A stretch of 64,000 bases of DNA, taken from positions 372,001 to 436,000 of the forward strand of contig VSJF01000009.1 of the NCBI GenBank assembly GCA_009739215.1, given 5' to 3'. The notes under the pieces are model-generated. The model was not told the origin of the DNA. It saw only the letters and a list, made by a program, of their open reading frames with translations, and did not search any database. Position 1 is the first letter of the stretch; every line of letters begins with the position of its first letter. Position numbers and translations under genes: made by a program. Positions 8,795-44,246 of this stretch are shown here, piece after piece. This DNA comes from Floccularia luteovirens. Lineage: Eukaryota > Basidiomycota > Agaricomycetes > Agaricales > Squamanitaceae.

Positions 8795-10320
8795 TTATAC
8801 GATGTGGTCTACCGAAGCCTGTCGGTGGATAGTGACGATAATGCCTTGGGTAATATCAAGGTGTCCGCGAGCAACGGGATAGATACTTGGTGGGCTGAAA
8901 GGACGATGATATGCTGGACTGGAGAGAACATAATCTAGATAGCTATTTTCGCTTGGTCGTACATCTTCGGGAACTGTCGGGATCGTGTAATCGTGATTTC
9001 CATGCGTATTATCCGTAGATTGTGTGCGGAATGAACTGGTAGATACTGTATACGAGTCTGAGTCGCAGTTAGTCTCCATGGATTTTGTTGGCGTAGCAGG
9101 GGTCAGTGTCAAGGCACATGAATTTTGAGATGGTAACGAAGTGGTTGACAACTCCTGAGGTTCAGCGTGGTGCTTAGTTTGTTTGCTGAACGATCAGAAG
9201 TAGAGGTGAGTCAGGGGATCAAAGAAGTCTGCTTTGAAACCACACCTATTGAATCCAGAGGGATGTCTGTTCCAGATATTCTTGAGAGTTTTCAAGATTT
9301 CACGGTATTCCTTCGTGATGTCCTGTCCAAATGAAAAGAAGATAAAGGAAACGAAAGCAGATATAGGCATCATCCACCAAAATAGCATTTGAACACTAAG
9401 GAATGAAGTAGGGCTCAAGGGTGTTGGGTAGAGGTTGACTCGTGAAAAATTGAAATTAACATCAGCCCAGGTAGTCCAGGGACGCAAGCCCTCGGTCACG
9501 TTTATATATAGATAGGAAGACGTTAAAACACTACCCCAGATGATTTGGGTAACGGCCATCGCAATAAGTCTAAGGTACCGGTTGGTAGAGAGGACAGAAT
9601 TCGACACTTGCAAATGAGCAGTGAAAGTGAGCCTTCGACGAATGAAGTGATGAATTGCTAGACCTATCCAAGGTGTCAGCATAATAAAATACGAATAATA
9701 TACTAAACATACCAATATATATAAGAGCGATGGTGCAAAAAAGGAGCGGAGGGAACCACATGATCATGATACCAGGGGTAGAAATGTATACAGCTGCTTG
9801 GCATCCTGTGTTTTCAAATATGTCGTAACGGTGGCTTTGTACCACATAATCTAACAAGATCAACTTAGAATTACGAACATCTGAGTAATAAGAAGCTTAC
9901 GAAGTGCCATGAAAAGAAAGGGAATAACAAAACACATAATTATCTCGAAAACCATACGGAGACGCCTGTCAACCACCTTTCTTGATGAAGACACCATATC
10001 AAGATGCCTACAGATACACATGATGGATAACGGAACAGCAAACGATGCGCCGACAACTACTTTTGATGCTAATGGAATTGAACCTTGAATAAAAGAGATA
10101 AAAACTTCATGAAGAAGCAAGAGACATACTAATGTCACACCACACTGGAGCAGAGTCGTTGACATTATCAGCCCAAATGACAGCGTTCGACGTTAACAAC
10201 AAATAACCACGCGATAATTGACAGAGGTGCAATGTCACGAGCGCGCCAATGCAATGGTAAAGGTATCAAGACAAGAAATGCTGCGATAAATGCAAAGACA
10301 GAGAGTTCAGGATGCTGCAT
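8795..10320 (-). pseudogene. STE3-type pheromone receptor R1, apparent frameshift in the TM2 region
   Basis: Fungal STE3 receptors are seven-TM GPCRs that bind farnesylated mating pheromones. This copy starts MQHPELSVFAFIAAFLV and has the hallmark blocks PLPLHWRARD, VWCDI, SHRYDIFENTGC, HFIRRRLTF, LRPWTTWADV and FFSFGQDITKEY, then a Ser/Thr-rich cytoplasmic tail (about 9135-8795) after an intron. Introns sit at the same places as in receptor R2. At about 10185-10190 the frame breaks: R2 has 15 nt (IYAVD) where R1 has only 4 nt, a net loss of 11 nt after LFVVNV, and a stop follows within eight codons. The frame before and after the break is otherwise well preserved. This suggests a recently damaged gene, a sequencing or assembly error, or a rescuing alternative splice. 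The CaaX pheromone gene lies 1 kb upstream on the same strand. Confidence 0.85.
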
Positions 10321-10493
10321 GATAAATATCAAACCAAGGACAGGGCAAGGGGAGACGATGGTCCTTTGGAGTTGTGCTGCCATTATAAACATCGCTTCAA
10401 ATAAATTTCGGAGCGATACAAAGGATATTGCAGAGTACAAGTTGGAAGTCCGACATCGTACAATGGTACAATGAGGCTTGCCCTATTTAGTAA

Positions 10494-10556
10494 TTATCGA
10501 TAAGTACTTAGTATTAGTAATACTAAATGAAATCTGTATTGTCATCACGTGATGAC
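10494..10556. promoter_or_regulatory. Cluster of four palindromes upstream of receptor R1
   Basis: Within 63 bp there are TTATCGATAA (10494-10503), TAAGTACTTA (10501-10510), TAGTATTAGTAATACTA (10509-10525, one central base unpaired) and GTCATCACGTGATGAC (10541-10556, perfect, with a CACGTG core). They lie about 170-240 bp upstream of the R1 start. They could be dyad sites for bHLH/bZIP or homeodomain regulators; no site is assigned. Confidence 0.6.
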
Positions 10557-10754
10557 AAATTTCTTCCATCACGAGTGACAGCATTTGATGCTCACTTGCG
10601 ACTTTTCAAGCATGTCGGGTCATGGATGCATGGATGCCTAACAAGACAAGCGATATTATGTTGAATACATTCCTGCAACAAGTTACTGTCTTGGTCAAAG
10701 GCACTTGCATGCATATGAGAATTTGATCATTGTCGTAAAAATCCATTTACCATA

Positions 10755-10886
10755 TCAAGCATTGCCCTCCCTAATAATGGCCCGAACGGCTTCAGTATAC
10801 ATGTCACGGGAGACATACCAGGTACTCATGACATGAACCAGCACTTCTGGATCTTCAAACTGAACGTTGAACGACAAAGGGAACAT
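10755..10886 (-). CDS. Short orphan reading frame or terminal exon, unrecognised
   Basis: The minus strand stays open from about 10927 to a stop at 10755. The composition looks coding: FNVQFEDPEVLVHVMSTWYV is followed by SRDMYTEAVRAIIREGNA. An internal ATG at 10886 would give 43 residues. A CAG acceptor sits before FEDPEV, so it may also be the last exon of a longer gene or a gene relic. I recognise no family. It sits between receptor R1 and the pheromone precursor gene. Confidence 0.4.
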   Translation of the reverse strand: MFPLSFNVQFEDPEVLVHVMSTWYVSRDMYTEAVRAIIREGNA

Positions 10887-11341: not shown

Positions 11342-11518
11342 TCAAGCAATAACGCAAAAAGTAGTTGTCGTTGATCCCATGTCGTATTCTTGATTGACAG
11401 GTACATCTGTCGAAAAGGGTAGATGTTCAAGCGGTGGATTGTGACCAGTGCACAAGTTCATGGAATCATCTGGTGATAGCATGAAATCCAGAGATGAAAA
11501 GTTGTTGAATTGGTCCAT
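11342..11518 (-). CDS. Mating pheromone precursor (CaaX, CVIA)
   Basis: The 58-residue single-exon ORF begins MDQFNNFSSL, resembling the MD-x-F start usual in basidiomycete pheromone precursors, and ends STTTTFCVIA. The last four residues are a farnesylation CaaX box: Cys, two aliphatics, Ala. In this family the precursor is prenylated, trimmed of the last three residues, carboxymethylated and cut near a charged pair upstream. Here NQEY offers a plausible cut, giving a peptide of about 11 residues ending at the Cys; this cut is inferred. The ATG at 11518 is the first in frame. The upstream leader (about 11546-11746) contains a 15-bp direct duplication (CCAGTTGGCCACATT twice) and a GTAAGG donor-like site, so a 5' UTR intron is possible. 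The gene is on the same strand as, and upstream of, receptor R1. Confidence 0.85.
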   Translation of the reverse strand: MDQFNNFSSLDFMLSPDDSMNLCTGHNPPLEHLPFSTDVPVNQEYDMGSTTTTFCVIA

Positions 11519-13575: not shown

Positions 13576-15229
13576 ATGCATCCAGAACTTGGACCCATTG
13601 CTACCCTTGTTGCCGTTTCCCTTATCCTTCCCCTTCCGTGGCATTGGCGCGCCCGAAACATTGCTACCCTTGCTATCATCGCTTGGTTGTTCGTCTCCAA
13701 TGTCATATATGCTGTTGATGCTTTTGTTTGGAGTGACAATGTAGAGATCGTGTTACCCGTTTGGTGTGATATATGTACGTTGTTGGCTTTAATACATATG
13801 CAAGATCTAATGCTTGTTTCTAGCTACCAAAATCATGGTTGGAGCTAATTTTGCTCTTCCTGCTGCCTGCTTTTGCATCTGTATCCATCTCGAACAAGTT
13901 TCATCGGCTCGTTACGCTCAGAGGACCTTGGCCGACCGAAAGAAGAGGATGATCTTTGAGTCTTTCATGTGCTTCGGAGTGCCCATAATTTTCATGGCTT
14001 TGCGTAGGTCTTCTGAGCTTATCCATTCCATATTGACTGATTGCATTATTAGATTATATCGTGCAAGGCCATCGTTACGACATATACGAAGGATATGGAT
14101 GTCGGCCATCTATCTATGTCTCTATTCTGGCTATATTCATTATCTGGATCCCTCCAATTCTCATGGCCGCCGGTGCGCTTGTCTTTGCAGGTGAGTCTTG
14201 TTAATATATACACACGCATTTTCTTAACATGTTTATTGTTTAGGTCTAGCTCTTCGTCATTTTGTTCGTCGTCGTGTAACATTTGCCACTCATTTGAACT
14301 CTTCAAACACTGCTTTGACGACATCTCGATACCTACGGCTCATGCTTATGTCGGCGTTTCAGATGGTCTGGTCGATAACAATTACTTGTTTCAATCTTGG
14401 GTATACCATATTGGCGATCCCAATTAGACCATGGACCACCTGGGCAGACGTTCATTCTAATTTCTCAAGGGTTGATCAATACCCCGCGATACTTTTTCCC
14501 TCAAAAATTGATGCAATGTACTATGCTATTTGGTGGATGATCCCAACCTCTTCCATAGCTTTCGTAGCTTTCTTCTCTTTTGGGAAAGACGCAATGGAAG
14601 AATACAAGAAGTGTTTCATGTGGATCCGCCGTAACATCTTCCATCAAAATACTGAAACAGAGGGGAAGTTCAAAAACTTGTCTTTTCCCAAGTATGTTGT
14701 TCAATATCAATCATTATACGTCAACACTAATACAAATTCTAGCATACTTATTAGTAACCCATTCTGTCCCAAGTCACCTGTGAAAACAGAACGTTCTACA
14801 GTGTCACCACCACCGATATATGAAGCACCCCAACTGTCAGTCCTAAGCTCTCCAAGTCATATTTTCGTCAACAACGAACACAAAATACAACATGAATCGT
14901 CCATTTATGAGAAACATTCAATCTACTCTTTCTCAAATGCTTCTGATGCAAGCCACTCACCAACTGATTCTTTTCAAGAACTCCATTCCTCCTATTCCGC
15001 ACAATCCATAAATCCCCCCACTCCTTCTGGTACTCGCTTATTACTTGCGGGTCAAAGTTTCTTGCCAGTATCAGACAGGGTCAAAGACATTGAAACACAC
15101 CTGCCAAGCAGCCATGTTGTTATATCAGCTCCCAGTTGCCGACCTTCAGCCCCACGGCCTTTTACCTTTCCCTCCTTCGAAGCTTCGCATGCTGATATAC
15201 CAGTTTTTAATCCTTATGACGCCCAATGA
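13576..15229 (+). CDS. STE3-type pheromone receptor R2, intact
   Basis: Seven-TM fungal pheromone GPCR acting at the plasma membrane upstream of a heterotrimeric G protein and MAPK cascade. It starts MHPELGPIATLVAVSL at ATG 13576. Family blocks in order are PLPWHWRARNIATLAIIAWL (TM2), VWCDI, FMALHYIVQGHRYDIYEGYG (after splicing), RHFVRRRVTF, RPWTTWADVHSNFSRVDQYP, IWWMIPTSS and FFSFGKDAMEEYKK. A Ser/Thr/Pro-rich cytoplasmic tail of about 170 residues follows. Introns fall at about 13770-13822, 14006-14050, 14190-14243 and probably 14693-14743; the last is 51 nt and in frame, so it may be retained. Length is about 480 residues. It is closest to R1 in this window and shares its intron positions. 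Confidence 0.92.
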
Positions 15230-16771: not shown

Positions 16772-16799
16772 TGGGAACTGGGGAATACTTCAAAGATAA

Positions 16800-20036: not shown

Positions 20037-22988
20037 TTAACCATGTCCTCCATCCCAACTCGCCCGTTTCCTTTTGTTATCACCGCTTCTCAGCATCAAG
20101 TCCTGTGGACACACTGCACTTTGACCACGGTGATGTCCTCCACCCAACATCATCCTCCTCTCTGTACCAGCATTCATCTTATTCCCAAATACGTTCACAC
20201 CTTGACCCACGTCAATGCCAATACCAAGCTCAATGCCCAGTCCACCATCAATCTGAGTCTGTGGTATGTGTTGCCGCAGAGACGCTGGTATACCAAGGGA
20301 CCTTAGGGAAGACGATGATGCGGCTGACTGCGCAAGGTCAAGTGCTAGCGCTTGCCCCATGGTACTTTCCAGAGACATCTGATGGGTATGCCCTGACCCA
20401 TTTGGCGCATGGCTGCTGGTCGTCGAATGCGGGTAGTAATGCAAGTCGAGGAATGGCAAATCATATAAATCCCCTGGTGATCCGCCGCCCAGCGTACGGT
20501 TCCAGAGATCGACGGAGGATGGTGGCATTAAGACATTGGAAGGGTACATTGCTGCTGTTGGAACAGGACTGGCTACTTTGGCAGCAGTATCACCATTTAT
20601 ATGCTGCTGCTTATTAGGATTTTGGGAAGGTTGCTGCACCGAAGGATGAAATTGGGAGGAACGTGTGAGTGGGAACGAGTTGGAGTGGTTGGTTTGTACT
20701 GGACGAGGTGCTGCGCGTGCCTCAGTGGGTGGGACAGAAATCGAGCGACTATGCACTGAGCCATGGATGGAGCTGTAATGCTGGAAGGCGGAACCAGATG
20801 AATGCCTTACCGGGCGAGGCTGGAATAATGGTGTGCCAGGTGGTGTCGAATGTAAACTGTCTGGAGACAAGTCCACAATGTCGTCTAAACCACACATCAG
20901 GGCTGAATCTTCCGGCTCGTCCTTGTGCTGTTCCTGCGTTGGCTGACGAGAGCGGTCCAGAACAACAGGAATCTCTTCCATCGAGTCATGATCATGAGCA
21001 GAGTCTACCCGGTCGTTCAGTGTAATCCCCGTCAATTCGATCTCGTCGATTCCTGGTAGCGCTGGGGTATGCAATTGCATTGGGTGTATGCTATTTTGTA
21101 CTGCAGGTGTAAGACCTAAACCTAAGCCACCGAATCCTGTTGCAAAATCGGCAGTTCCATAGAAAGACTGTTGTGGCTGATGCGTCCGAGCACCAAAAAT
21201 TAGGTCACCAGCGTAGTTAGAGTGGTGGGTGAAGCCGCGGAAGCCATTCGGTGGGAACATGTCGTCTGAGAATGTAGAATGAGAGTCGCCTACGCCGACT
21301 TCTGACGAAAAGTCATGTGGCATTGTTGCAGGGAATAAATCATACCGATCCAATACGCCATGGTTAAGGTGGTGATGGAAAGAAAATGGAGAGGCAGGAC
21401 TGTTGCTACTTCCAGGATCCAGTCTAGGATTGGCAGAGAACCAATCTTGGGCACCCCAAGCAGATTTACCGATCATGCTACTTCCGACTCCTAGACTTAT
21501 TGTGTCGGAACGTGGCTGGAATGGGGATGATTGTGATGAGTGATTCATTAGAAGGTCTGCTGATAAGTGACTGGATGTAGGTGACCCAGCTGCGGTCGAC
21601 CAGGTGTGGTGGGAATGTGTCGGCGTATCGAGGCCAGATGACCATGTCTGGGACTCTTCCAACTCTGACTGCGTTTGAGAATTCATAATATCGGGAATAG
21701 ACAACGGGTCGGAAAGGTCATCTAGAGTGACCATCTCCATTTCGTCGTCATCTGGCATGATGAAAGCCTTTGAAGACGAGAGGAATGCAGGAATCTTTTT
21801 ATCTGCCCGTGTGGTGCTGGTAGAAACATTTTCCACAAATATTGGAGTATGAATGGGACCAGCAGGCGCTGAAAGGTCAACTTCCTCTTCTCCTCCACTG
21901 GAGTCTTCATCTTCAGAGACGGCAGCACTTTGTGGAACACTTTTGGTACCACCTCGTAATAAACCTTGGCTTGTTTGTGCCCGGCGTCTACTCCTGACTG
22001 GACCTGTCGTAGACATGGATAGCTGGTCATCAGTGGCGGCGCGGACGGGGGTTTTAGGACCGTCGATTAATGATTTTTTCTTCGTAGTGCCGCGGGGCTT
22101 GTATCCTGCTGCTTGATAAAGATCTGGGAATGCGTTTCTAAAGCGGTCCCGAAGGTCAGTCGAGCGCCTATGTTGCTCCTGGAATACAGGATCTTTGACA
22201 ATAGTAGCCCAGACTGTGCCGTACTTTTCGTACCCAGCTTTAAGAGCACGGTCTTCTTCCTCAGTAAATGGGCGACGCCTCTTGCTACGTGTTTTCTCAA
22301 AAAGTGAAGACCCATCAGGTAGCGTGGAGCGGACTTTGCTAGATAAATGTGTGCGTGCGTTTGGATAGTGCTGTTTGTACGCATCCGGAAAATATGTCCT
22401 GAACCTGATAATAAAACATAACGGATTGCGTGAATATGTATAATCAGGCGTTTCAAGTATATCCGAATTACCTGTCTTTGAGATCGACAGGGGTTCTGTT
22501 ATCAAACTTAAGGGCAGTGTCACTCAGTATGGTTTTCCAGTTGCCGACCCCATGCTATAAACACAAAAACCATAAATATCAGTCGGACATGAATGGTGCG
22601 TATCACAGACTTTGTTACAACCAGCTACCAACATATTTGTTTCTTCTTCGCTCCATTTTTTCCTTGGTTTCTTCTCTTGCATGTTCATTGCTCCAGAGCC
22701 TGAAGCGCCATCCTCGTCTTCAACAGCAGTTTCTATTTTGCGTATCTTTCCCTTTTTCTCGCCTCTTGCAACAAGTGACGCTTGAGCGACGTGGGAGTCA
22801 AGAATAGTGTCGTCACGGAAGCTCCAAGCTTGCACAAGCCGTGGTGAGGAGGGCAAGGCAAGAGAAACGCGTCTTTGTTTCAGATGAGAGATGGCACTCG
22901 TAGAAGAAGCCGGAAATGGGGCCTTGAAAGAGAAAGTTGACGACGGTGGGCCTTGTGTCTTAGTGGGCATGCCTTCGGTTGTTGACAT
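20037..22988 (-). CDS. Two-Myb telobox-type DNA-binding protein (Tay1/Teb1-like)
   Basis: Two Myb/SANT repeats lie in the N-terminal part. The first begins KKPRKKWSEEETNMLVAGCN and continues over a 53-nt intron into HGVGNWKTIL and VDLKDRFRTYFPDAYK. The second is RRRPFTEEEDRALKAGYEKY with TVWATIVKDPVF and STDLRDRFRNAFPDLY. The DLKDRFRN helix-3 motif is typical of telomere-repeat-binding (telobox) Myb domains, as in fission yeast Teb1 and Yarrowia/Ustilago Tay1. The role, TTAGGG-type repeat binding at telomeres or promoters, is inferred from that family. The remaining roughly 700 residues are low-complexity, Ser/Gln/His/Pro-rich and probably disordered. ATG 22988 is the first in frame; introns are at about 22559-22610 and 22405-22470. 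Long plus-strand frames over 19.9-22.1 kb are antisense shadows. Confidence 0.85.
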
Positions 22989-23717
22989 GACAGTAACACT
23001 CTTTCACCGTAACAATCTTAGTCTGGGGCTAGGGCAAGGATTCGGCTGGAGATAGTGACAACACGTCTATACAGCGAGGCTTCAGATAATCGGATATGAA
23101 AAGGGTAGAAGACAGAAGTGTGTGATATCGCAAGTAGGTTAGCACCGTGATGAATACGGGGATCAAACCGACTTGTGGGGATGGTGAATGGGGGCGACGA
23201 TGAGCTGTATTAACGATACAAGCCAAGAGGAGATTTGGAAGGGAGGAAAGCAGTGGTGGAAAGGAGAGAAGGAAGAGAGACTTGGAAGAAGGCACGTTGT
23301 GTATGGCCTGCTTAGCTAGTGGCCAATACTTCCTTTTTCGGATAACACGCCCAACCCGAATCTGTCGTTGTCCATCATTTCTTACAGCATATTTCATGTT
23401 TTCTGGCCACAAATTTCTTAGGTTTCCATGAACAATACATGCCACGCAGCACAAGCTTATGTTTTTTTTTTGATTCTAGTACGAAACCATCAACGTTTCA
23501 CAGGATCAACCCTCGTGTTGCTTTATTTAGAAAACGGGCTGTTTCGCCGCATGTACGTACCATACCCCAACAGAATATATAAATGTCGGATACTAATCAA
23601 ACTCGGAGTCAAGTGATAAATGAACAAGACCCGATCAAGGATTTCAAGGTGTCTGGTACTGGTAGTGTGGCGGATTAAACTCATCAGATTATACAACATC
23701 TACACAAACTTTTATTT

Positions 23718-25369
23718 TCAAGCTCCAATCAACACTTCAGGTGCAATACGCTGCTCTACAGAATTCAATTTTTGTACCCACTCTTCCAACCGGTTTGCCA
23801 GGCCACCAATTTGTTCTCGAGAAAGTACACGAGGTTGCACCCATGTGATATGTGCCTTCTGTTCTACCTGATCCAAGGACCCACGTATCAGCTTCAAGCT
23901 AGATATCATAGATAAAAGTCAGCTTGTGTTATGGCCAGGGTGAAAGATGATGAAGGGGGTGATAGGAAGTTGAGTGTCTAGACCACGACTCGCTCCCGAT
24001 ATAACATGATTAGGAGGCAGCTGATCTTCGATCCCCAAGTAACGAGGCAAACAGAATGGAGCAAAGAACATGTGGGTAAATTATGACACGCACCTCAAAG
24101 CCTTCATGACAAGGTGCTCTACCTCATCTATAGGCAGCCGCGTTTCTTCCGCTATGGTCTGGAAGCTCATCGTCCGGTTATCTGCGTTTCGCTTGAATAC
24201 AGATTCGATAAGTGCCATGAGGCATATCTTTTGACGCAGGAACGCGTAGTTTTCTTGGAGGATCGGCTATTATAAGCGTAACCAAAAGGGAATCACTAAT
24301 AATGTAATGACTTCATACAAAGACCCACCTCTTTAGGAAACAGAGGTGCCAACGCCTCAAATTTACCAATATTTCCCTCATTGAATGTGAAGAGCAATTT
24401 CTTAATCCATTCATGTTGGGTTCCATTCAATGAGTCCAAAATGGGGTGCATAAGCTATTTTATGCTGAGCAAACACAAACACTCTCAAGTCCAATAAAGC
24501 ACACACCAGTTCGCCAAAGTTGTAAATTGTATCACCCAAGAACGCTGAGATACTCAAGTCATGCGCTCTCACAAGCCGTTCTTCCGGGGACATATCTTTT
24601 TCCAGATCCACACATGCCAGATACAGCAACGAGTTTCGATAATATGGAGCATACTCTGCTTTGCCCTTTAGATAATCTATGAGCCACAACCACTATATCC
24701 ATGGATAAATATACCTTGTAGTAATCCGCAGCTACACCATAATATGCGGCATTAACGATGCTCTCGACTCCTTCCAGGGTATCAAGGATCTTCCAAGCAG
24801 AGTCCATATCCGTCTTTGTCCCCTCTAAATCTCCATACAGCAGTTTAGCATGTGCAATACTCGCTAGTAGCAAAACATGAGCCTCGGGTGATTGGACGGT
24901 GTCTACTCGGGAGAGAAGAGATGTTAGGAACGTTAGATGCCTTTGCGGGTCTACATGTCCAATTGTTCCAATTAATTATTCAGGAAAAGAGGCCTGCAGA
25001 TATTCAAATTTGACGTACTGTCAATATCCTTCGACACCTTAACACACATCTCCACCAGTCTCAATTGATTGATTTTCCCTTCAAAATCCCTAACAAATAC
25101 ATCAAATACATCCACTCGGTACGGCCGTGCAAGTGGATGATCTAAAAACTGGAACAGTTTTGTTGTTAGTTGATGCCATAACCTATGAAGTAATCATAAT
25201 GAAAAATCGCTGGTCTGGCAGTTTTAATAACAAAGATAACGCACTTGCGCGTATACAGCGTTCGGAATGATTCGAAAAATGGATGTAGTTCTGGGGGTGT
25301 AGCGGATAGAGCCTTGTTGATAAAGTTATCTAGAACAAATTTTGGGGGTTTGGGGGCTTCGGCAGACAT
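23718..25369 (-). CDS. RPN9: 26S proteasome regulatory subunit Rpn9 (PSMD13)
   Basis: Non-ATPase PCI-domain subunit of the proteasome lid, needed for assembly or stability of the 26S particle. The start is MSAEAPKPPKFVLDNFINKA at ATG 25369. Later bl blocks include RPYRVDVFDVFVRDFEGKIN, LRLVEMCVKVSKDID, a helical repeat region (SILAHAKLL-type, AAYYGVAADYYKVY), GDTIYNFGELVCALLD and SLNGTQHEWIKKLLF. The end is the winged-helix-like ITWVQPRVLSREQIGGLANR with VEQRIAPEVL, stop at 23718. Many short introns interrupt it. Size and block order fit Rpn9 family members of about 380 residues. It is head-to-tail with MRD1 upstream, with about 200 bp between them. Confidence 0.9.
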
Positions 25370-25563
25370 GATGTGCGTTAATGAAAGTGTTCGACAAAAC
25401 AGTCGATATTATAATTAATTGCGAATGGCGAGCAGGAGGACGCGTCGGCCTAAAATGTGGTCGTGTTTGGGTCAAATGAATAAAGCCAACAACACCAAAC
25501 AACATATCTGCAACGGGCGATTTGTGAACAAAGTACAATACTATGGAAAAATATGCAATACAA

Positions 25564-28427
25564 CTATGTCTCTAAATCCTCCGCGTCCTCCATTCCAGTC
25601 TTCCCAAGATCCAATTTTCGCTTCCGTCCAGGCATTTCTTTACCATCACCGAACCCAACACCTGCTTTCTTTCTCAGTGCATCCAGATCCTGCTCTCCCT
25701 CTTCAGCCCATTCAAGTACCAGATGTCTTCCAAGCAAATGTGTATGACGTAGTGCTGCGAACGCGTTTTCTGCTTCATGTCGCGAGACGAACTCGAGAAA
25801 GGCAAATCCACGCGTATGTGAATTGAACTTCTTCGGAAGGCGAACTGACTTGAGGTGTCCATGAGACCTAACAACCCAAATGTGAGCGGTGGATCGTAGT
25901 GTTACAAAAGAAACATACCCAAACAGTTCCCTGATATCTTTCTTTGTAGCCTCAAACGGTACGTTCTTGACAATCATTTTGCTAGTTCGACTCTTCGAAC
26001 TAACATCCTTGTCTTTTGTACTGACTTCATCTACACCTCTACCAGCGAACTTGACGTGCAATGCATGCCCATCAAGCGCAAAATCTTGCATACTGATCAT
26101 CGCCTTCTTCGCACTCTCCACATCTTTAAAGCCAACAAACCCATATCCCATACTCAACCGTGGTCCATCAGGACGTTTAGGGTCAGGTTTCGTTTGGAGT
26201 CTCGCAAAGGCAAATGACGGTAGATGCTTAAATACCTGCGTTAGGCGGTCTTGTGTTGTAGAGAAGGACAGATTTTTGATGAATAATGTCGTTCCGCCGG
26301 TCACAGTTGGCTCATCAGCTCCTTCATTTGTTACTTCTTGTTCTGGAATCTTCACAGGCTGAGAGTTTGCAGCCGCGCTAGCAGGAATCGGCTCCTCTCC
26401 CGTATGAGTGCCATCAAATATTCCTAGAGGTCCTTTTTCCAGATATACAACGGAATTGCCAAGCCGTCGATAAGAAACGGCGCGAAACGCTTTCGCAGCT
26501 TCGTCCGGACGTTCAAAGTCAACTACGGCCATTGTACCCGCGGGTGGCACGAGCACCCGACTCAAGGATCCATGAGGTTCAAACATCTCCCTGATCTGTT
26601 CTACTGTTGTGCCATATGGGATGTTCTTTACTAGAATCGTCGTATCCGATCTAGCCTTGGAAGAAAATGAAGACAGTAGGACACCTTGAGACTCTAGGTA
26701 TGACTTAGTCTCTTGGATGATGTGTGTTTCGGCTAGAGCTAGTTTCACTGCTGCATTATCCCCTGTCTCGGGATTCAGGATTGCAGTTTTGTCAATGTTC
26801 AGCCTATCCGCAATAGATGACGCAACCGCATCACTCTAAGAAACAGGAGAAAAAGAGAGTTAAAGTCAATACACCCTTGCAATCTCGCCACACTAACGTT
26901 CATATATAGCATGCTCCAATTGAATTCTTTTCCTGCCAAAGCCTTTCGTTTTGCTTGTCTTTCATCTTTAACAGTTTTCTTCTGACCTTCACCTTCCTCA
27001 ACTTGATATTTTGGCTTCCGATCAACAGCTGGTAACAGGTGTAGAATGCGACCTTGGAAAGATGTTTTGTCGAGTGCTTCATAGGCCGACAGAGCATTGG
27101 AGGGGTTTGAGTACGTGACATAGGCAAGACCTTTAGACTGTCGGGTTGCAAGATCAAGAGGTATGTGCACCTAGATAAAACAGAGTTAGATGGCATGTCC
27201 AGAGGCAAAGTGATACAATAATGATCAGAATATATTTCTACTATCGGTTCCCTGAGGATCAACATTCCAGAAGGTCTGATGTCCCTATTTATGGTGTCAT
27301 CTTGAAAATGGATGGAAATTAATAATCACCTAAAAGATATGTCACGTTAGATTCATATCGTCAATAAGGTTTACGATAAAACGAGTTCGAAAATCAGAAT
27401 GTTTATTCTACTATCGGTATCCCTGAGGATCATCATGGGAGTCTGTTGTCCCTATTTAAATATTCATCTCAAATATCTCTTCCTGAATGGCAGAAAAGAA
27501 ACTAAAATAATAATACAACACCACACTTACCTGAGATAATTCTCCAAACGGTTTGAATATTTCTTCAAGCTCAGCTTGCGAACATGAGAATGCCAAATTC
27601 CGCACAAAAATGCGAGACGTCTGTAAAATAGTCTCTTTTGTTGTGTCCACTGGTTTCGATTCTTCAGCAGGTGGTTTGATCTGTACTGAACGGTCAATCT
27701 CAAAGACTTCAAGGACACAGGTCGATGAAAAGAACCTGAACTTCGCGCTCTTGGTCGCCCTCTTCATCAGACTGTTCGAATGCCTTTTCTACCTTGTCAA
27801 CATTATGTGACATGCGCATCTTCATCCATTCCAGATCTGACAATTCCTCTTTTCTTGCAGCATCAGCATTATCATCAGGAACGACAATAGGCTCCGCTGT
27901 CCGACCCTCGTTTGCCCATGATGGGCCCTTCTTTGTACGAGGCTGCATAACATCCATAAATTCGTCGATTTGCCCTTTTTTCGCAGGTATTGATATGCTG
28001 TCAGTCTTGCCAGGCAAGTCTACTGAACTCGAAGGCACATTTGTTTTCACCTCATTCGGGGAAGGTCCTAATCTTGGACGTTTATTTGGACGTGGCGCGG
28101 GCGCATCTTTTACACCCTATAGGGGTTAAAGCGAACTTCCGTTAATAGAGCTATCTGAACGTGAAAATAAAAAGCTGTTACTTCAATGATATTTACACTG
28201 ATTCTGGTAGAACCAATAAATGTCCGATCAAAATACTCTTTCGCCGCAAGAGCTTCCTTCTCTGTCTTGAATCCGACAAATCCAAAACGTCGCGAAGTCC
28301 CATCTTGTTTATGAGCGACCTTAAAATCTGTGATCGAGCCGCCTGGTCCACCTTTTTGCTCGAAGTGTTCTTTAAGCTTTAGAGGAGTTACATACGTTGG
28401 CAAATTCTTGACTATAAGGCGCGACAT
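25564..28427 (-). CDS. MRD1: Multiple RNA-binding domain protein Mrd1 (five RRMs)
   Basis: Mrd1 (RBM19 in animals) is a nucleolar U3/pre-rRNA binding factor needed for 18S rRNA processing. Five RRMs are readable in order: RRM1 at the N-terminus (MSRLIVKNLPTYVTPLKLKE, RRFGFVGFK); RRM2 (RIFVRNLAFSCSQAELEEIF, KGLAYVTY); RRM3 (TILVKNIPYGTTVEQIREMF, TMAVVDFE); RRM4 (TLFIKNLSFSTTQDRLTQVF, GYGFVGFK); RRM5 (KMIVKNVPFEATKKDIRELF, RGFAFLEF). An acidic/basic linker follows RRM1. The ATG is at 28427 and the stop at 25564, with introns near 28190-28115, 27745-27700, 27530-27175, 26890-26830 and 25920-25865. The intron between the RRM2 halves (about 27180-27530) is unusually long and holds a duplicated block. 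The gene appears intact. Confidence 0.93.
27225..27460. repeat. Direct duplication inside an MRD1 intron
   Basis: The block TTCTACTATCGGT(T/A)TCCCTGAGGATCA followed by TGTCCCTATTTA occurs at about 27236-27290 and again at about 27407-27460. It lies in an intron of about 350 bp, while the other introns in the window are mostly 50-60 bp. Confidence 0.75.
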
Positions 28428-28635
28428 GGAGCTATTCCCTCTTCAACCATACAAGTCAGTCTTGTGAGCATGAAAATAAGAGCTATAGTTACAACGAGAA
28501 ACGAAGGCGAAGAAAACTTACAAAAATGTAACTGGGACTCCAATAATTTATACTCCGCCTGGATATAGCCGACTGCTTAATTGATTGAAGGGTTTCTCCA
28601 AAATATATCATCAGAACAAGCTGAATGTCCTCAAA

Positions 28636-29532
28636 ATGTCCTCTCAGATAAAATCCGTATTCTCTGACGAAAAGAACCCCCGTGGCATCCCAAAAGCTCC
28701 TTTTATCGTACGCAATCCGACCAAACCTCTACCATATTGTTTACTTATCATCCGAGGCGGAATGCACCATTGATATTGACAGGCAGATGTCGCAGAATAT
28801 CTAGGTGGACCCGACGCGGAGGTTGAAGGACCACTTAAAAGCTTCCAGGATGCGCTAGCGTACGCGTCCATATATCTCCCACCCGTGATTTCGCGTCACG
28901 ATATCTGATGAGAGTACAGTAAATACCGTTATATGGATTCAAATCTTGCACAACGGCGCTCTAGTCTGGAAGAGAAGATCCCCGATATTAAAAAAACCCT
29001 GGACATGGTGGAATACCTTCATGAATATAGAGTTTGTCGTCTTGATATGCCATAACGTTTCCACGTTTGATACCTCCGAAATTTTAGGAAGGCAAGACTC
29101 GCACAGACGGCGAAAATGATGATCTAGAAGATGACTTGGATGATAACACAAGCGCCAAGAAACCGATGCGTACGACTTTTGAGTTGAATGACACTCTCTA
29201 TGCCGAAGCGGAACTGGAGGATACCGACACAGTATTTCTATGGTTGGGGGTGTGTTCTCACTTCAACTGTCAAAAATACCCTGCCGACTATTTTTACAAA
29301 GGCAAACGTAATGCTGTCCTATAAAATTCCAGCCGCAATCACATTGCTGAAGTCAAAATTGGAGGCTGCTCAGAAAAGCTTGGAAAACACAATTGAAGAC
29401 CTGGAATTTCTTCGCGAGCAACTCACAATCATGGAAGTGAATACTGCACGAGTATATAACTGGGATGTAAAACGAAGAAGAGAACGAAGATTACAGGAAT
29501 CTGGTTCTACAGACAGAAGTCCGAAGGGATAG
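28636..29532 (+). CDS. PAC10: Prefoldin subunit 3 (PAC10/VBP1)
   Basis: Alpha-type subunit of the hexameric prefoldin chaperone that passes unfolded actin and tubulin to the CCT chaperonin. The protein reads MSSQIKSVFSDEKNPRGIPK, then ADVAEYLGG, KYRYMDSNLAQRRSSLEEKI, PDIKKTLDMVEYL, FELNDTLYAEAEL, TVFLWLGANVMLSYKI and AAITLLKSKLEAAQKSLENT, ending with IMEVNTARVYNWDVKRRRER. Two coiled-coil helices flank a beta-hairpin region, as in the family. Introns are at about 28709-28771, 28859-28920, 29035-29090 and 29250-29310. Start ATG 28636. It is divergent from MRD1 (about 210 bp between starts), suggesting a shared promoter. Confidence 0.92.
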
Positions 29533-36507: not shown

Positions 36508-38394
36508 ATGCATGCTGAGCTACCCGTTCTCTCCTTCGTCTGTGTGGTGCTCCTTTCTGCGTTCATCCCTACCAAGAGAGGGCGCACAAATGTCGCTGGG
36601 CTTTCTATTTCTGTCTGGCTTATTATCTGCAACCTTATTCATGGAGCGAATACTATCGTATGGGCTGGCAATACAGGCGATCATGCTCCTGTTTGGTGTG
36701 ATATTGGTATTTTTTTTGATCCAATATATAATATCTCCCTTTTTAACTTATCTGCCTAGCCACAAAACTCCTCTTAGGAGCTCTGATTGCAGTTCCTGGT
36801 GCATGTCTCTGTATTTCGCTTAATCTGGAATCGGTCGCCTCGAAAAGGCCGATATCTTTCGATGCAAATGCTTTACGAAGGCGTAAGATGATTGAATATG
36901 GACTTTGTTACATTCTTCCTTTAATATATATGCTGTGGCGTACGTATAATACCACGGAACTTCAAACTTATCATTGAACTATCATGCCAGACCTCATTGT
37001 TCAGGATCACCGGTTTGACCTTGTTCAGGACTACGGCTGTTCTGCATCGATACATCCTTCGTTTCCCGGAATTATTTTGGTCCAGTTGCCACCCCTACTT
37101 ATATGTTGCATATCTTTCGTTTTCTCAGGTATGATTCACTTGTCGAAATGAGGGAAGCATATCAGTGACATTTTTAAAGGGATCGCTTTAATAAACTCAT
37201 CCCGTACCAATTCGGAAACGTTTTCCTTGTACATATCTTCAAGATCTTCTTTGACGTTATCAAATTTCTATTGCCGTGTCGCTATGACCCTATTGATGAA
37301 TACAGGACTCTTATCCATTCTTATTGCATCTATTGCAGTTATCCACCCTCTCCAGTTATGGGGTTCTTGGACGGAAGTTCATGCGCATTTTGGCGATATT
37401 GCTGTTATACGGGCAAGGGATTCTTTCTACGCCATTCCTACCTGGTGGGGTTTATTCTCACTTTCCGTTCTCTACGTCTTGCTTTCCTTTACTCTTGGGG
37501 AGAAGGGGAAAACCTTGTATAAGCGACTCAAGAAACATCTCGGACGCAAGGACAAATCGAGCAATACAATTCTGTTGCCATTGCAGTAAGTGTCTTTAGC
37601 CTTGAGATGATGGGACGCTCATATCAATATATCTAATCAGGAAGGGACAATCAGAGGGGGTCACTCATTCTATGAGAACACACCAGCGCCCTCTTACCGT
37701 GGAGCTTAAATCTGGATGGGATGACATGATGGACTTCAAGAGTCCCAAACGCACTCGTTCGGGTAATAGCAAGAAGTCTCAAGAGTTAAGCTTGTTACAT
37801 CGTGGCAGTCCAAGCCCCAACCTCACTTCGGCAGCCGAAGATGACATCTTCATGGAATCCACTTTATCATACCTGAAATCACCCACAGCGCAAACACTTG
37901 GTCTGGCAAACCCGCCGATTTCCCCTCCTAATATCTATAAGCCACCTGCAAAAGCGGGAGTTGAACAATCAGCTTATCCTGATCATACTAATCGAAGTAC
38001 CTCACCTCGATTGGTACGGCCAGAAGCTAATGGTACTTTATCTGCCGTACTTAAGGCACCATGGCCAGTTCCACCCTCATCTCCCGCGCCCAGTGTGGAT
38101 CCGCTACTCTCTCCTTCTCGTTGTCATTCGCCTTCTTCTTCTGTAGATTCTACTTTTGCATACCCACTGCGACCTGTTGTCACTCCTCCACATCTTCGAA
38201 ACCGACCATTTGAAGGGTCTAACGTTACCATTCCCCTTGACTCTTCCACGTTTACTGAGTCTGGTTCCCAGAGAGCTGTGCCAAAGCGCCCCAGTTTACG
38301 GAGTTTACAGAGGAGCTGGAGTCGAGAGAGTAACGTACTCGATTTTGTCCCCGGTGAAGTAGTCCGGATGACCGTCGTCACGGAAGTCGTTTAG
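36508..38394 (+). CDS. STE3-type pheromone receptor R3, intact
   Basis: Start MHAELPVLSFVCVVLLSAFI at ATG 36508. STE3 blocks include VWLIICNLIHGANTIVWAGN, APVWCDIATKLLLGALIAVP (after splicing), MLWHLIVQDHRFDLVQDYGC, ILVQLPPLLICCISFVF, SNFYCRVAMTLLMNTG, WGSWTEVHAHFG and TWWGLFSLSVLYVLLSFTLG. The cytoplasmic tail is long (about 240 residues), Ser/Pro-rich with basic patches, and ends VVRMTVVTEVV. Introns at about 36707-36761, 36940-36991, 37129-37180 and 37586-37640 all splice in frame. Relative to R1/R2 it is more divergent: it has WGSWTEV where R1 and R2 have RPWTTWADV. I found no dedicated pheromone gene beside it. Confidence 0.9.
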
Positions 38395-38639
38395 AAGTAG
38401 GTTTTCTCCTCCCAAGTTCAAGAGTCCACTTCGTCATTCATTTGATTGTTCCGGTAACATGCCTATTCACCTACTGTATCTACTTTCCGCCTTCTAGTAC
38501 CGTTTTTTTTGTAGCATAACCCAATCACTGTAGCATTTATATTGATATGATTTAACTATGCCATCTGCCTTCTTACATCACCTTCATTATACATATGATA
38601 TAACAATTATATTAAGATTCTAATTAACACCCTTTCTAA

Positions 38640-39060
38640 CTCCACCGTCTATTCCGAGAACAAAGTAGCAGACTGTTTTGGTAACCATAAATCACTGGCC
38701 AAAATCAAGAAAGCTGCCGCGGTGGGATCATAAAAACTAATGGGTAGTAAGTTCGTTGTCATTGTAACGCATCTATGCACTTCTGGTCATCAACCACCAA
38801 AGATGTTCTACACATTTCATGCTTCCGTTCTCCTCGTAAGACAACGCCATTTGATTCCAAATGGTTCCAGCCCTCTTTGGGAACACCACTGCTGAGCTGG
38901 GCTCAATGATGTCGCTCGAGACCTGTATTGCCATCACGATGTTGGTTGATGGCATACTCTCTGCCCAAAATACGGACGGCGGTGGCGGAAACACAAATTT
39001 TTTCATCACATCTGATTTTGTTCATCACCAATGGAATACCTTTTCCTTGTGAACTATATG
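38640..39060. repeat. Degenerate duplicated segment, copy 1
   Basis: This copy matches 41802-42345. Both open with a CACCGTCTATTCC(G/A)AGAACAA block, then GCCTGTTTTGGTAA-like and TCACTGGCCAA-like blocks. Both contain on the minus strand a frame piece ending in HLWWL, and CGCCACCGCCGTCCG. It looks like two decayed copies of one gene fragment or element. The source protein is not recognised. Confidence 0.75.
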
Positions 39061-39099
39061 GTGGTGCGGCTGGCCTGTAAGAGCTCAAATTTACACTCT

Positions 39100-41800
39100 G
39101 CGGCCTTCTGGGGGCCAGGTACAGTGGCAATGACATCATTAAATACAACGTAGTTTGTCTACCGAAAAGCGAGTGGCCAAAAGAAAAATAGATCTTAGGT
39201 CATTACATACGTTGGAACGTATTTCAGAGCTAGATATATATATAAATTCATCTCATTTCAGTTTCGGGCTAGAATGTCGTGTAATTTAATCCATGCATGA
39301 ATAATCTATCCCTTGATGTGCACGTGTAAAATATTTAATCAGCTTGAATCTTGAAGCTTTCAATGCAAGCACGGAAGACAGGTCCCACATACAAGGAAAG
39401 AATGTTTCCATTTTGGGATAGAGAGATTACCATTGATGACTGTCTTGGCCTCCCGAGTGATTTAGAAGTTGGACTTTGGGAGTGCACTCGCCTGATTCCA
39501 AATCCCATACGTAATCTGCCTTGTCCAACCCACGGAAGGTAGCCTGTGTGTCATTGTGCAAAAACATGTTGGAATACTGTCGAGCTGCGACTGCCATATG
39601 AGAATACATATCTCGTTGTTTGTGGGTCAGTTGGTATGCAATTGTCGTTAGAACATAAGTCACTGTATTTAACTTCTCGTTGCAACTAGGGAAGAAGAAT
39701 GAAGCTCCAAGCGCACCGGTGGAATAGGGGAGCTAACTAACAGGGAACGGGCGTGTGGGACACGGCTAGTCAGTAGATACAACTGTTTGTAACGTGTCAC
39801 AACAACTCATAAGAAGTCTTCACGGTGTAACCAGGTGTACGGAGACACTCGGGGACACTCCACCAGCCTTTGTCCGATCTTTGGGCCATCTCGAAAGCGA
39901 TGGTTGACTTCTAGTTCCAGCATCTTCGGTGATGACATATATAAAAGAATCGCCTTGAGCAGTGAGTCCGATCGGAGTTACCACTTTGTAAGTTCTTCCA
40001 ACAAAGCAGTTCTACTGGCAATGTTCCCTGATCAAGGTTAATACTGAATAGGTAGTAGTGATATTTAAAGGAAGAGAGATTTACGCTCTTGTTGTGTGCA
40101 TCTAATTTGCTGTAGGCAAGGCCAATGAGGTTGGTTAGACAAGAGGAGAAAAAGGCAATTACCTTAACATCATCCACGATCCAATTGATCAACATCTCAA
40201 TGGTAATCCCACCTCGAACCTGTCATATGCTATCGTCACTCAATCAGTTAGAACTAACGAACAAGAGTCTTAGGCATACTTGAAACTCTCTAGTCGCATC
40301 ATCCCAGTCTTAATTTTCAATAATATATCTGCATTTTTTTGTGCTTAAGAGCAACATGAACAATCCTTTCTCGAGATTGTTCGTATCGTCCGCCAAATCC
40401 TTCAGATCTCTACAATGATCAGATGATGAGTGCAGCAACTCTCTCCTTAAACTCGCGCGAGCTTACCAAGCGGGTGCGTGCCAAGTTGCCATGGTTGGTA
40501 CCCAAAATAGACCCAACATTGATCCTCGTCTCCTGGATGACCAAAGTAAAGAGTTGCTATAGTATTTACCAGGTCTACAAGTATTTCGCCATTCCCCTAG
40601 CCACCCGTCCAACCCGATCATTCAATCGAGCGTGAGGCGAAAGATAGCATCATTATATGCTCACCAAAATCATGCCAGTGAGGGCGGACAATGCTGAGGC
40701 AGCGCCTGGTGGCCCTGGTGTAGGGGCGAGGCCGGGTGGGTCCTTTGCGGCAACGAGAACTTGCTTCGTTGCAGTCAGAATGTCATTGGTGCGCTGGTCT
40801 CTGTTTTTAGATGTTAACGGTGCCTGGGGAGTCTATTTGTTCGATTTTTGTCCTCCTAGTGGACGAGGTAGACAAGATGTATCGAAGGGTAGTTGTCTAC
40901 ACTGGTATGAGAATGACGGGGTTAATATGATGAGCACAACCAGCCGTTTGCACGAGAGGTAGGTCCAGTTCGACAGGTTACAGGCGCCTGCGAAGTTGGG
41001 TATTCAAAACTTGTGAGCAGAAGAACCTCGAACACTGCCGAGAAATATATCGATAATGGTTATCTACTCTCTGGCATGAGTCACGGCTTGACAAAGTCCA
41101 GCAGGATCCCGGGATCCCAGTTGTACGTAACTTGCATAATCGAAATAGAAAGATGTTGTTCACAGGAAATGATGGGAATGGCATCCAGAACCAATCTCAG
41201 CATTTTCGATGTTTTACACAAATTTCAATTGATACTTTGAAAGATTGAAATTATATACTGTTTCCAAACTGTTTCTCGCCATTCAGTCTGACATAGAGTG
41301 GTTCAGCCCATTTCAAACTCTCGAATTCTAACAACGGAAGGAGGAAAATTTGTGGCGAGCGGTCAGGGGGACCAACGATGCAGACGGAGATTCATGGGAT
41401 GGTGAACGCAATATCGCCACAAGGCAAACGCACAAGTAACTAAGGGTAAAGATGAAGGAGATGAAAGAATACATGAATCAGACGAATGACAGGGGCTCGA
41501 CACTTCTGCTCACAACTCCAGGACTCCTACAGAACCAATTTGCGACTTTCCTCCAATGTCTCCCTTGCTGTATCTGGTATAATCCCAAGCTCCAGGCGAG
41601 CTGGTTTTTTACAATTATCGATAAGCTCACCGTAGTAGCCGATATCTTAACTGCATTTTCATGAATGAATTTGCGAGCCATGATGGTCTAATATTCCACA
41701 TTACTTTTAATACCATGTCATCCATCTCCTAACACCGGGGACCATGTAGCATTTTATTACCCATTCCAGTTACAAGTTACCTTATTCCAGAGATATAACA
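39100..41800. other. Gene-poor spacer with possible gene relics between R3 and R4
   Basis: Short frames only. A minus-strand piece at 39663-39427 reads TYVLTTIAYQLTHKQRDMYS after a SFFFP-like start. This resembles the sensor region of fungal NACHT NTPases (FFFSR...TIAYQL), but it is too short and lacks a P-loop here. No CaaX end in a usable frame was found on either strand. Confidence 0.35.
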
Positions 41801-41801
41801 T

Positions 41802-42345
41802 CACCGTCTATTCCAAGAACAAAGTAATAGCCTGTTTTGGTAATCATAAGTCACTGTCCAAATCAAGAAAACTACCGCGATGTCACCAAATGGGAATGAC
41901 AAAATCATAAAAAGCGGCAAATTGTTGTCTTTGTAACACATCTGTGTACCACTGTTCATCAGCCACCAAGTATTGATATCATCTAGTGCGCGTTAGAATC
42001 TCTGGACGAACCACGATAGGAAACAAGTCGGGTGAGCTCGTCGCAACCACCAAAGATGTTTAACACCCGTTATGCTTCCGTTCCCTTCCTCGTGGGACGC
42101 CATCATCTGACTCCCAATCATCACAACCTTCTTCGAGGACACCATCTGGAACGTATTAATCATTTTCAGCCGATCCGTGGCCGTGTTGATCCCCAAATGG
42201 GCTGGATGGTGTCAGTTTAGGCGTTTATTACCACTACAATGTCCTACCTCTTTGCCCGAATTGCGGACGGCGGTGGCGGAACACAAACTTTTTCACATCT
42301 GATTCTGTATATCAGCAATGGAATACTTTTTGCCTGTGACCACAT
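41802..42345. repeat. Degenerate duplicated segment, copy 2
   Basis: Second copy of the segment at 38640-39060, in the same orientation. It is interrupted by an extra stretch of about 60-70 bp near 41970-42040. It lies about 330 bp upstream of the R4 start. Confidence 0.75.
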
Positions 42346-42672
42346 GATTAGTGCGGACCATGCCTTACCTCAAGACGACAAAGAACCGCCCAAATGAGGA
42401 CTCTCCTCAGTTCCTTTCTGAGTCGTTGAGTTGCAATGAGCACATGGCCAAATCAAGGAGTTCTGTAAATCTTCGGCCCACCTTTGGCACGCATACAAGG
42501 GGACAACCTAATATGTACACAGCGTAAGAACATCAGAGTAAATGCTCAAAAGGCTCAGGAGATCGTTGGAAATTGACCACCCTTGTCGTGTTCTTGGGAC
42601 GGACTATATCTTCTTGCAACTGTTGAAGGTCACTGGCTCAGCTGCGCCAACCATTCCCCTCAGCGCTTCGAG

Positions 42673-44246
42673 ATGTCATATCCCAACTACATCTTCTCCA
42701 TCTTTTCTTTTGTTGGTTTCCTATTGTGCAGCATCCCTTTCCCATGGCACTTGGAATGTAAGGTTTCTCAGAACTTTGCACTATAATGGATGCTTACTAT
42801 TCCTCATGTAGCTTGGAACACCGGAACTTGCCTGTACATGGCTTGGACAGGACTTGCCTGTCTTAACCAATTCATCAATTCTGTTGTTTGGAATAACAAC
42901 ATAAATAATCCTGCCCCGGTTTGGTGTGATATCTGTATGTCTTCCTGTCTACTTGTCTCATTCCAACACACTCTTATATCCATTTGATTCAGCAACCCGC
43001 TTCATGGTCGCTGTACCCGTCGCCATTCCTGCTGCATCTCTTTGCATCAACCGTCGTTTATATCATATATCGTCAGTTCAGTCTGTCACTATCACAAGAG
43101 CAGAGAAGCGTCGTGCAATCATAATCGACCTTGCTATTGGCTTGGGTCTCCCCATGATCGAGATGGTTTTTCGTAAGTGACCCACAATCATCTTTTCCCC
43201 TCCTGGACTAACACACAAACAGAGTACATTGCCCAAGGACACAGATTCAACATTTTCGAAGATGTTGGATGCTATCCATATACCTACGATACTCCTGTCG
43301 CATATGCTTTGGTGTCTTTACCCCCTGTGCTTATTGGCCTCGTGTCTGCTGTTTATAGCTGTGAGTAAAACTTACCAGCGGCCTGTCACGAATACTGACC
43401 CGTTTATAGTTTTGAGCATTAAGGCATTTAACAGGACCCGCACCCAGTTCAAGGAGTTCGTTTCTAATAACAGCAACTTGAGCTCTTCACGATATATTCG
43501 TCTCATGTGCCTTGCAGGCGTCGATATACTGGGTACAGTTCCTATTGGAATTTATGCCCTCGTATTGAATGCATCAAGCGATAACATGCGGCCTTGGAAG
43601 GGGTGGGCAGACACCCACAGTGGATTCTCTCGCGTCGATTTCTTCCCATCCGTTATCTGGAGGAATATTCCCATTTTACAGTCATCTGTTGAACTCAGTC
43701 GCTGGGTGACAGTTACCTGCGCATTTGTGTTTTTCGCGTTCTTCGGGTTTGCTGATGAGGCGAGGAAGCACTACCGCTTGGCTGTGCAGTCGGTGGCTAA
43801 GCATGTTGGAATCTCGACAGCGTCTGGAAGTAGCTTTGGAATGTTCAGCTCTAATGGGTAAGCATCTTTTGTTGATTTATTGACTTACGAGTTTGTTCTT
43901 ATGGTATCCGTTTATTAGCGAAAAATCGGGCAGTTTCGCAATTGGTTCAAATGGTCGTCTCCAGCCGATTTTGCCCATCTTTACGAACCGCCATGTGATG
44001 CGAAGGCATGATTCCACGGATTCTTTTACCGACATCTCTGCATCCACCGGTGATTTATCAAGTATTTCTAGTGAAAAAGAAAAAGCATTATATGAGAACA
44101 CGCCATTCCAAGACGTTGGTAATACACTCGCGGATCACGTACCAGCAACTCCTTCTCCTGTGCTCAGTATATCTTCTTTCCCCACCCCTCCGGAACCTGC
44201 ATTCATTAGACCAGGATCCGAACTCGACACTCCCCCATCAAAGTAA
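42673..44246 (+). CDS. STE3-type pheromone receptor R4, intact
   Basis: Start MSYPNYIFSIFSFVGFLLCS at ATG 42673. Then come PFPWHLE, an intron, WNTGTCLYMAWTGLACLNQF, VWCDI, RAEKRRAIIIDLAIGLGLPM, YIAQGHRFNIFEDVGCYPYT, SSRYIRLMCLAGVDILG and MRPWKGWADTHSGFSRVDFF, ending with FFAFFGFADEARKHYRLAVQ. Introns near 42757-42811, 42935-42990, 43173-43222, 43362-43410 and 43857-43918 all keep frame. The tail is Ser/Thr/Pro-rich and shorter than in R3. It belongs to a different STE3 subgroup from R1/R2 by its N-terminus (PWHLE-WNTGT in place of HWRARNIA). No pheromone gene was recognised beside it. Confidence 0.92.

What the first reader, a model, noticed from the sequence alone, without database searches (positions are those of the whole stretch)
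8795..44246. Four STE3 pheromone receptor genes in 35 kb: a candidate mating-type B (P/R) region split by a housekeeping block
R1 (minus), R2, R3 and R4 (plus) are recognisable from conserved STE3 blocks and shared intron positions. R1/R2 form one subgroup (HWRAR, RPWTTWADV), while R3 and R4 each differ. Between R2 and R3 lie TAY1-like, RPN9, MRD1, PFD3 and others. This arrangement suggests either a B locus plus non-mating-type receptors or a locus broken by rearrangement.
Basis: partly seen in the sequence, partly recalled or inferred. Interest (0 to 1): 0.75.

Follow-up and report, generated by a model that had tools for sequence, protein, structure and literature searches.

The report
Mushroom pheromone mating locus, one receptor broken
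This stretch of a mushroom genome carries an ordinary pheromone-and-receptor mating-type locus, in which one of two mating-class receptors is frame-broken in this assembly, followed by two receptor-like genes of kinds often found beside such loci in other mushrooms.

Summary
The four STE3 genes are real and where stated (R1 stop at 8795, R4 stop at 44246). So R1-P-R2 is best read as the P/R (B) locus. In trees R2 falls with known mating-type receptors (S. commune Bbr1/Balpha8, P. eryngii B3/B4) and R1 in another old line; R1+R2 as sisters is rejected (p-AU 1.5e-46). R3 falls in the clade of Hypsizygus STE3.s1, R4 in a conserved line presumed to be that of STE3.s2; relatives of R3 and R4 share a contig in 23 of 51 listed cases. 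A PAK kinase 19 kb beyond R1 and an HD locus with MIP on another contig fit a tetrapolar layout. R1 is 11 nt short in a TM2 segment whose length is the same in 294 of 307 homologs, so its frame is broken, while its introns and tail look intact. The layout with housekeeping genes between is ordinary. The unusual point is a locus with one pheromone gene found and one intact mating-class receptor. Allelic tests could not be run.

The parts
8795..10320 (-). R1, mating-class STE3 receptor, frame-broken: exons 10130-10320, 9901-10068, 9713-9850, 9246-9663, 8795-9185
   Evidence: Pfam STE3; models; TM2 segment 11 nt shorter than the length found in 294 of 307 database homologs; clade 96/96
11342..11518 (-). 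Pheromone precursor, 58 aa, CVIA box, Glu 11 residues before the Cys; 1.0 kb upstream of R1, 2.1 kb from R2
   Evidence: Only ORF in the window meeting the pattern, where 27 of 200 dinucleotide shuffles also have one or more; PF08015 23.5 bits, cut-off 22
13576..15229 (+). R2, intact mating-class STE3 receptor, 500 aa: exons 13576-13774, 13824-14003, 14053-14190, 14244-15229
   Evidence: clade with S. commune Bbr1/Balpha8 and P. eryngii B3/B4
20037..23003 (-). TAY1-like protein with Myb domain, between R2 and R3
   Evidence: PF13921 in ORF 20040-22523; second Myb-like stretch in ORF 22524-23003 by eye only (no Pfam match)
23718..25408 (-). RPN9 (26S proteasome subunit, PSMD13)
   Evidence: PSD13_N 51.4 bits; PDB PSMD13 chains, both for ORF 24562-24975; outer exons by eye
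25564..28442 (-). MRD1/RBM19-like multi-RRM protein
   Evidence: RRM_1 matches; PDB RBM19 domains
28939..29532 (+). Prefoldin subunit 3 (PFD3); 5' part by eye
   Evidence: PDB prefoldin subunit 3, E 1.5e-16 for 29188-29529
36508..38394 (+). R3, conserved receptor-like gene, 558 aa: exons 36508-36706, 36760-36939, 36991-37128, 37180-37585, 37641-38394
   Evidence: 67 homologs, many aligned over 100% of the query, tail included, among them Hypsizygus marmoreus STE3.s1; clade 99
42673..44246 (+). R4, conserved receptor-like gene, 433 aa: exons 42673-42757, 42812-42934, 42993-43172, 43223-43360, 43410-43857, 43919-44246
   Evidence: 65% identity over 91% of the length in Crassisporium; clade 100

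Best explanation
This is the P/R (B) mating-type locus of an agaric mushroom with a tetrapolar-type layout. The B locus proper is R1-pheromone-R2 (8.8-15.2 kb). The pheromone precursor would be farnesylated at the CVIA box and cut near the Glu to give a peptide of about 11 residues; secreted, it tells a partner its B type, while the intact receptor R2 senses the partner's different pheromone and starts G-protein signalling for nuclear migration and clamp fusion (all inferred from the family, not shown here). R1 belongs to a second old line of mating-class receptors but is frame-broken in this assembly, so the locus as assembled has one pheromone gene found and one open mating-class receptor. 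R3 and R4 are conserved receptor-like genes of kinds linked to B loci in other Agaricales, most likely not determinants of B type. The housekeeping block between R2 and R3 is flanking DNA, not a break in the locus.
For: The one ORF of pheromone type found lies between R1 and R2. A looser scan listed 24 short ORFs with a CaaX-like end, this one included, in 104 kb of C22 (11), 30 kb each of C21 (5) and C14 (8) and 10 kb of C16 (0); 7 of the other 23, and one ORF without Met, were scanned with Pfam and none of these 8 matched PF08015 at E up to 10. R2 lies in the clade of S. commune Bbr1 and Balpha8; R1 in a separate clade with C. cinerea O74284; the pair is rejected as sisters. R3 lies in the STE3.s1 clade, R4 in a conserved clade. 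By equal contig length, 23 of 51 R3-class proteins with an entered contig share it with an R4-class protein and 13 of 51 with a mating-class protein; 17 of 81 R4-class share one with a mating-class protein. A PAK kinase with PBD and kinase domains lies at C22:358916-361778, 19 kb beyond R1; in Serpula a PAK kinase lies about 18-19 kb from MAT B (passage). HD1, HD2 and MIP are on C1. R1 frame break.
Against: No second strain, cross or expression data: allelic divergence, the real test of B function, is untested. R3 has a longer end branch (1.07) than R2 (0.70). The pheromone is a modest match (23.5 bits against a cut-off of 22), and 27 of 200 shuffles hold a like ORF. R4's line is not purely non-mating: in H. 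marmoreus the mating receptors STE3.1 and STE3.2 fall in one clade with STE3.s2 (passage), and neither STE3.s2 nor these receptors were in my trees. UbiA, which flanks matB in Pleurotus, has none of its 17 matches on C22. R1's break rests on one unnamed assembly without reads.
Confidence: 0.82

Rival explanations
1. The P/R locus has lost its mating-type role (HD-controlled bipolar species, as in Agaricus bisporus, Coprinellus disseminatus or Volvariella), and R1's decay is a symptom; R2 and the pheromone may persist for fruiting or fusion.
For: R1 frame-broken and one pheromone gene found; such loss is published with the genes kept (passages of PMC8305134 and PMC4938666); HD locus present on C1.
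Against: R2 and the pheromone gene are open and typical; in Flammulina a single receptor and pheromone segregated with B3 (PMC3140503 passage), so a reduced locus can still work.
Confidence: 0.25
2. R1 is intact in the organism and the frame break is an assembly or sequencing error.
For: The other R1 exons, the ends of its four introns and a 130-codon last exon are open or canonical, odd for an old pseudogene; no reads are at hand.
Against: The deficit is 11 nt in a stretch without long runs of one base, not the usual one-base long-read error (recalled).
Confidence: 0.2
3. R3 and/or R4 are also B determinants, so the B locus spans 35 kb.
For: Linked on the same contig; mating and non-mating receptors alternate in Trichaptum (PMC8970355 passage); mating receptors STE3.1 and STE3.2 of H. 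marmoreus fall in the clade of STE3.s2 (PMC8686365 passage), so R4's line holds mating receptors too.
Against: No convincing pheromone gene near either (the nearest loose CaaX ORF, 32417-32536, is 39 aa and has no PF08015 match); similarity runs through the tails across genera; receptors without a neighbouring pheromone were not considered to discriminate mating type (PMC8686365 passage).
Confidence: 0.1

Closest known systems
Hypsizygus marmoreus P/R locus (PMC8686365: abstract, outline and passages)
   Same: Mating receptors with CVIA pheromones next to two receptor-like genes STE3.s1 and STE3.s2; R3 is 42% identical over its full length to STE3.s1
   Different: Three receptors and three pheromones in 22 kb there; here two mating-class receptors (one broken), one pheromone gene found, and 21 kb of other genes before R3
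Serpula lacrymans MAT B (PMC3564976, passages)
   Same: Receptors with pheromones plus two receptors without (Slrcb4, Slrcb5, identical in both strains); PAK kinase about 18-19 kb away
   Different: Three receptor genes with pheromones there
Flammulina velutipes matB3 (PMC3140503, passages)
   Same: Spread-out locus, a single receptor and pheromone segregating with B3, non-mating receptors in the region, one receptor pseudogene (FvSTE3.s2)
   Different: Its pseudogene is a non-mating copy; the broken gene here is in the mating class; CLA4 is not linked there
Schizophyllum commune B locus with brl1-brl4 (PMC8161036, passages)
   Same: brl1-3 surround the mating receptors and brl4 lies elsewhere, like R3/R4 here and R5/R6 on other contigs; six receptors per strain there, six receptor genes found here
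   Different: Bar and Bbr mating receptors are functionally characterised there

Membership tests
STE3-type pheromone receptor (Pfam PF02076) | Match to the STE3 profile above cut-off over most of its length | tested here: met
   exon-by-exon matches over cut-off, R1 1-292, R2 3-292, R3 1-286, R4 9-292; R3's ORFs taken singly are weak (27.1 bits, and one without a match)
STE3-type pheromone receptor (Pfam PF02076) | Open reading frame through seven helices | tested here: inconclusive
   R2, R3, R4 open; R1 broken in the second helix region. Helices were not predicted.
Agaricomycete P/R (B) mating-type locus | Pheromone precursor gene next to mating-class receptor(s) | tested here: met
   the score is only 1.5 bits over cut-off and the pattern occurs in 27 of 200 shuffles
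Agaricomycete P/R (B) mating-type locus | Receptor in a clade of functionally characterised mating receptors | tested here: met
   R2 with S. commune Bbr1/Balpha8 and P. eryngii B3/B4; R1's clade is known here only by database names (C. cinerea O74284)
Agaricomycete P/R (B) mating-type locus | Link to a PAK kinase (CLA4), seen in several species | tested here: met
   PBD and kinase domains, best PDB match PAK1; no PH domain was reported by Pfam, so CLA4 identity is presumed; the link is not universal (absent in Flammulina)
Agaricomycete P/R (B) mating-type locus | High allelic divergence and segregation with B type | not testable with these tools
   one assembly only
Non-mating receptor-like genes (STE3.s / brl) | No pheromone gene beside them | tested here: met
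   R3, R4: by ORF scan and Pfam; a spliced or unusual precursor would be missed
Non-mating receptor-like genes (STE3.s / brl) | Orthology across species in a non-mating clade | tested here: inconclusive
   R3 in the STE3.s1 clade; R4 in a conserved clade without STE3.s2 or the H. marmoreus mating receptors of that line in the tree
Non-mating receptor-like genes (STE3.s / brl) | Little variation between strains | not testable with these tools
   no second strain
Tetrapolar layout | HD locus unlinked to P/R locus | tested here: inconclusive
   HD1, HD2, MIP on contig C1 (3.29 Mb), P/R on C22 (1.48 Mb); contigs not proven to be separate chromosomes

The most novel reading that the evidence does not exclude
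A B locus caught while shrinking: one of two ancient mating-receptor lines has recently been inactivated in this haplotype, leaving one pheromone and one working receptor, either as a reduced but working B specificity or as the first step to loss of B control.
Probability: 0.3. Interest if true: 0.45.

Novelty: new member of a known kind. Interest (0 to 1): 0.3.

Why it matters
It points to the B mating-type genes of this mushroom and to which of its six receptor genes found are worth using as markers. If the R1 break is real, it is a natural test of whether B subloci are redundant, as held for S. commune and C. cinerea. The R3-R4 pair adds another lineage to the open question of what receptor-like genes kept beside B loci do.

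Tried and rejected
R1+R2 as a recent duplicate pair: rejected. The in-frame stop at 9194 as a second lesion in R1: rejected, it lies in a 60-nt GT..AG intron and the tail reads on in frame. An alternative donor site that would bring R1 back in frame: considered on the printed reading; the one seen would drop the WCDI block, so judged unlikely, not tested. UbiA as a flank: none of 17 matches on C22. A second pheromone gene on C16 (19.9 bits, under cut-off): no CaaX ORF in the 10 kb around it nor in the printed frames. Forty ORFs scanned against Pfam: 8 had any match at E 0.01, 5 over a curated cut-off (one Myb, one PSD13_N, three RRM ORFs). Literature searches for a frame-broken mating receptor in mushrooms: one search found no paper, one search listed 17, of which I saw passages of three (PMC8305134, PMC8970355, PMC3140503) and listings of the rest; none of what I saw reports one in the mating class, but the library is open-access only. 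Of the papers cited I saw passages only, plus abstract and outline of PMC8686365. Searches listed one paper, none and none.

The trees used 105, 313 and 45 rows. The 313-row tree took all 307 proteins listed; the others took chosen ones. Those lists are cut: best 120 of 477, best 120 of 1198, all 67. One search takes 'same contig' from equal contig lengths typed from these lists; rows without a contig and metagenomic rows on short contigs were left out, so its counts are lower bounds.
Full report
What is there. The window is part of contig C22 of a 27-Mb genome in 22 contigs. A Pfam STE3 search of the genome finds four receptor genes in the window and one each on C21 and C14. I made splice models by hand from three-frame readings and computed the products. 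R2, R3, R4, R5 and R6 are open; R1 is not. R1's first exon is 191 nt, against 199 in R2 and R3, although R1 has one more codon at its start, so it is 11 nt short. The deficit lies between a Trp and the WCD motif of the TM2 region: 294 of 307 database homologs, and R2-R6, have exactly 25 residues there (13 of 307 have other counts in this alignment), while R1 has 21 plus one base. Downstream, R1 reads open with GT..AG introns, one of which holds the stop at 9194. So R1 is a young null allele or an assembly error.

The pheromone gene. A scan for short ORFs ending in a CaaX box found one good candidate, 11342-11518 on the minus strand. It scores 23.5 bits against PF08015 (cut-off 22), 22.6 with its neighbours in the genome search, and has a Glu 11 residues before the Cys, near the spacing described for Agaricales precursors (PMC4938666 and PMC8686365 passages). 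By pattern alone it is not overwhelming: 27 of 200 dinucleotide shuffles of the window hold at least one such ORF. Its place between two mating-class receptors adds weight. A looser scan of C22:352001-456000, of 30 kb around R5 and around R6 and of 10 kb on C16 listed 24 ORFs, this one included. Seven of the other 23, picked by eye, and an ORF without Met were scanned with Pfam: none of the 8 matched PF08015. Among them are a 39-aa ORF ending CLSI at 32417-32536 and a 55-aa ORF ending CVLL on C14, 13 kb from R6. I could not scan the whole genome for short ORFs, and spliced precursors would be missed.

Which receptors are mating type. In a 105-row tree R2 sits in a 29-row group (96) with S. commune Bbr1 and Balpha8, P. 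eryngii B3 and B4 and C. cinerea Q875K7; R1 sits in a 6-row group (99) with C. cinerea O74284 and receptors of Pluteus, Psilocybe, Gymnopilus and Agrocybe. A 313-row FastTree keeps R1 and R2 in separate groups. Two old receptor lines thus stand side by side; members of both share a contig in Pluteus cervinus and Serpula. R3 falls in the clade of Hypsizygus STE3.s1 (99), though its nearest rows are weakly resolved (58 with three others). R4 falls in a conserved clade with a C. cinerea okayama protein named B alpha 1 receptor; such database names do not show mating function. R5 and R6 are each other's closest relatives, next to the R4 line. That R4 is of the STE3.s2 type is presumed from its five introns, its clade and its place beside R3 (passage), not shown by a tree.

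Synteny. Equal contig lengths put R3-class and R4-class genes on one contig in 23 of 51 cases, and R3-class with mating-class genes in 13 of 51. Locus tags are consecutive in Tricholomella, Termitomyces and Pleurotus djamor; in Hebeloma the R3-, R4- and R2-class names are 445226, 445228 and 445229, though such numbers need not follow gene order. A PAK kinase, with PBD and kinase domains and best PDB matches to PAK1, lies at C22:358916-361778, 19 kb beyond R1; its CLA4 type is presumed. The HD locus is on C1 with MIP. UbiA, the Pleurotus flank, is not on C22.

Reading. The layout is that of a tetrapolar agaric: a compact B locus R1-P-R2 and receptor-like R3 and R4 farther along. Papers say that such receptors are broadly found close to P/R genes with unknown function (PMC8305134 passage; PMC8161036 passages). 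Shown here: gene content, frames, clades, linkage on one contig. Inferred: pheromone processing, which receptor responds to what, loss of R1 function, and B control of mating.

Verdict. Ordinary in kind. The frame-broken R1 and the single pheromone gene found are the points a specialist would want to follow.

Noticed in passing
window 38637-39052 and 41796-42339: Two blocks of about 0.4-0.5 kb, 75-87% alike in pieces, 3.2 kb apart between R3 and R4; six-frame reading gave no clear gene.
   Followed up: partly
L033/L034 (C1:2170062-2174241): HD1 and HD2 of the A locus both appear to read on the plus strand beside MIP, where divergent transcription is usual (usual order from passages).
   Followed up: no
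L017:2993-4743 and L020:3647-4961 (plus tail): Two further STE3 genes, R5 and R6, each other's closest relatives, on contigs C21 and C14; no ORF of pheromone type was recognised in the 30 kb scanned around each.
   Followed up: partly
L021:7604-7771 plus (C14:1303604-1303771): 55-aa ORF ending in CVLL, 13 kb from R6; no Pfam match at E up to 10.
   Followed up: partly
window 30895-31221 minus: ORF with MRNFALTFVALLATIGYSAHAAPGG near its start, looks like a small secreted protein; no Pfam match.
   Followed up: no
L012:3-437 minus: Fragment of a fungal peroxidase gene (PF00141, 43.5 bits) about 28 kb left of R1.
   Followed up: no
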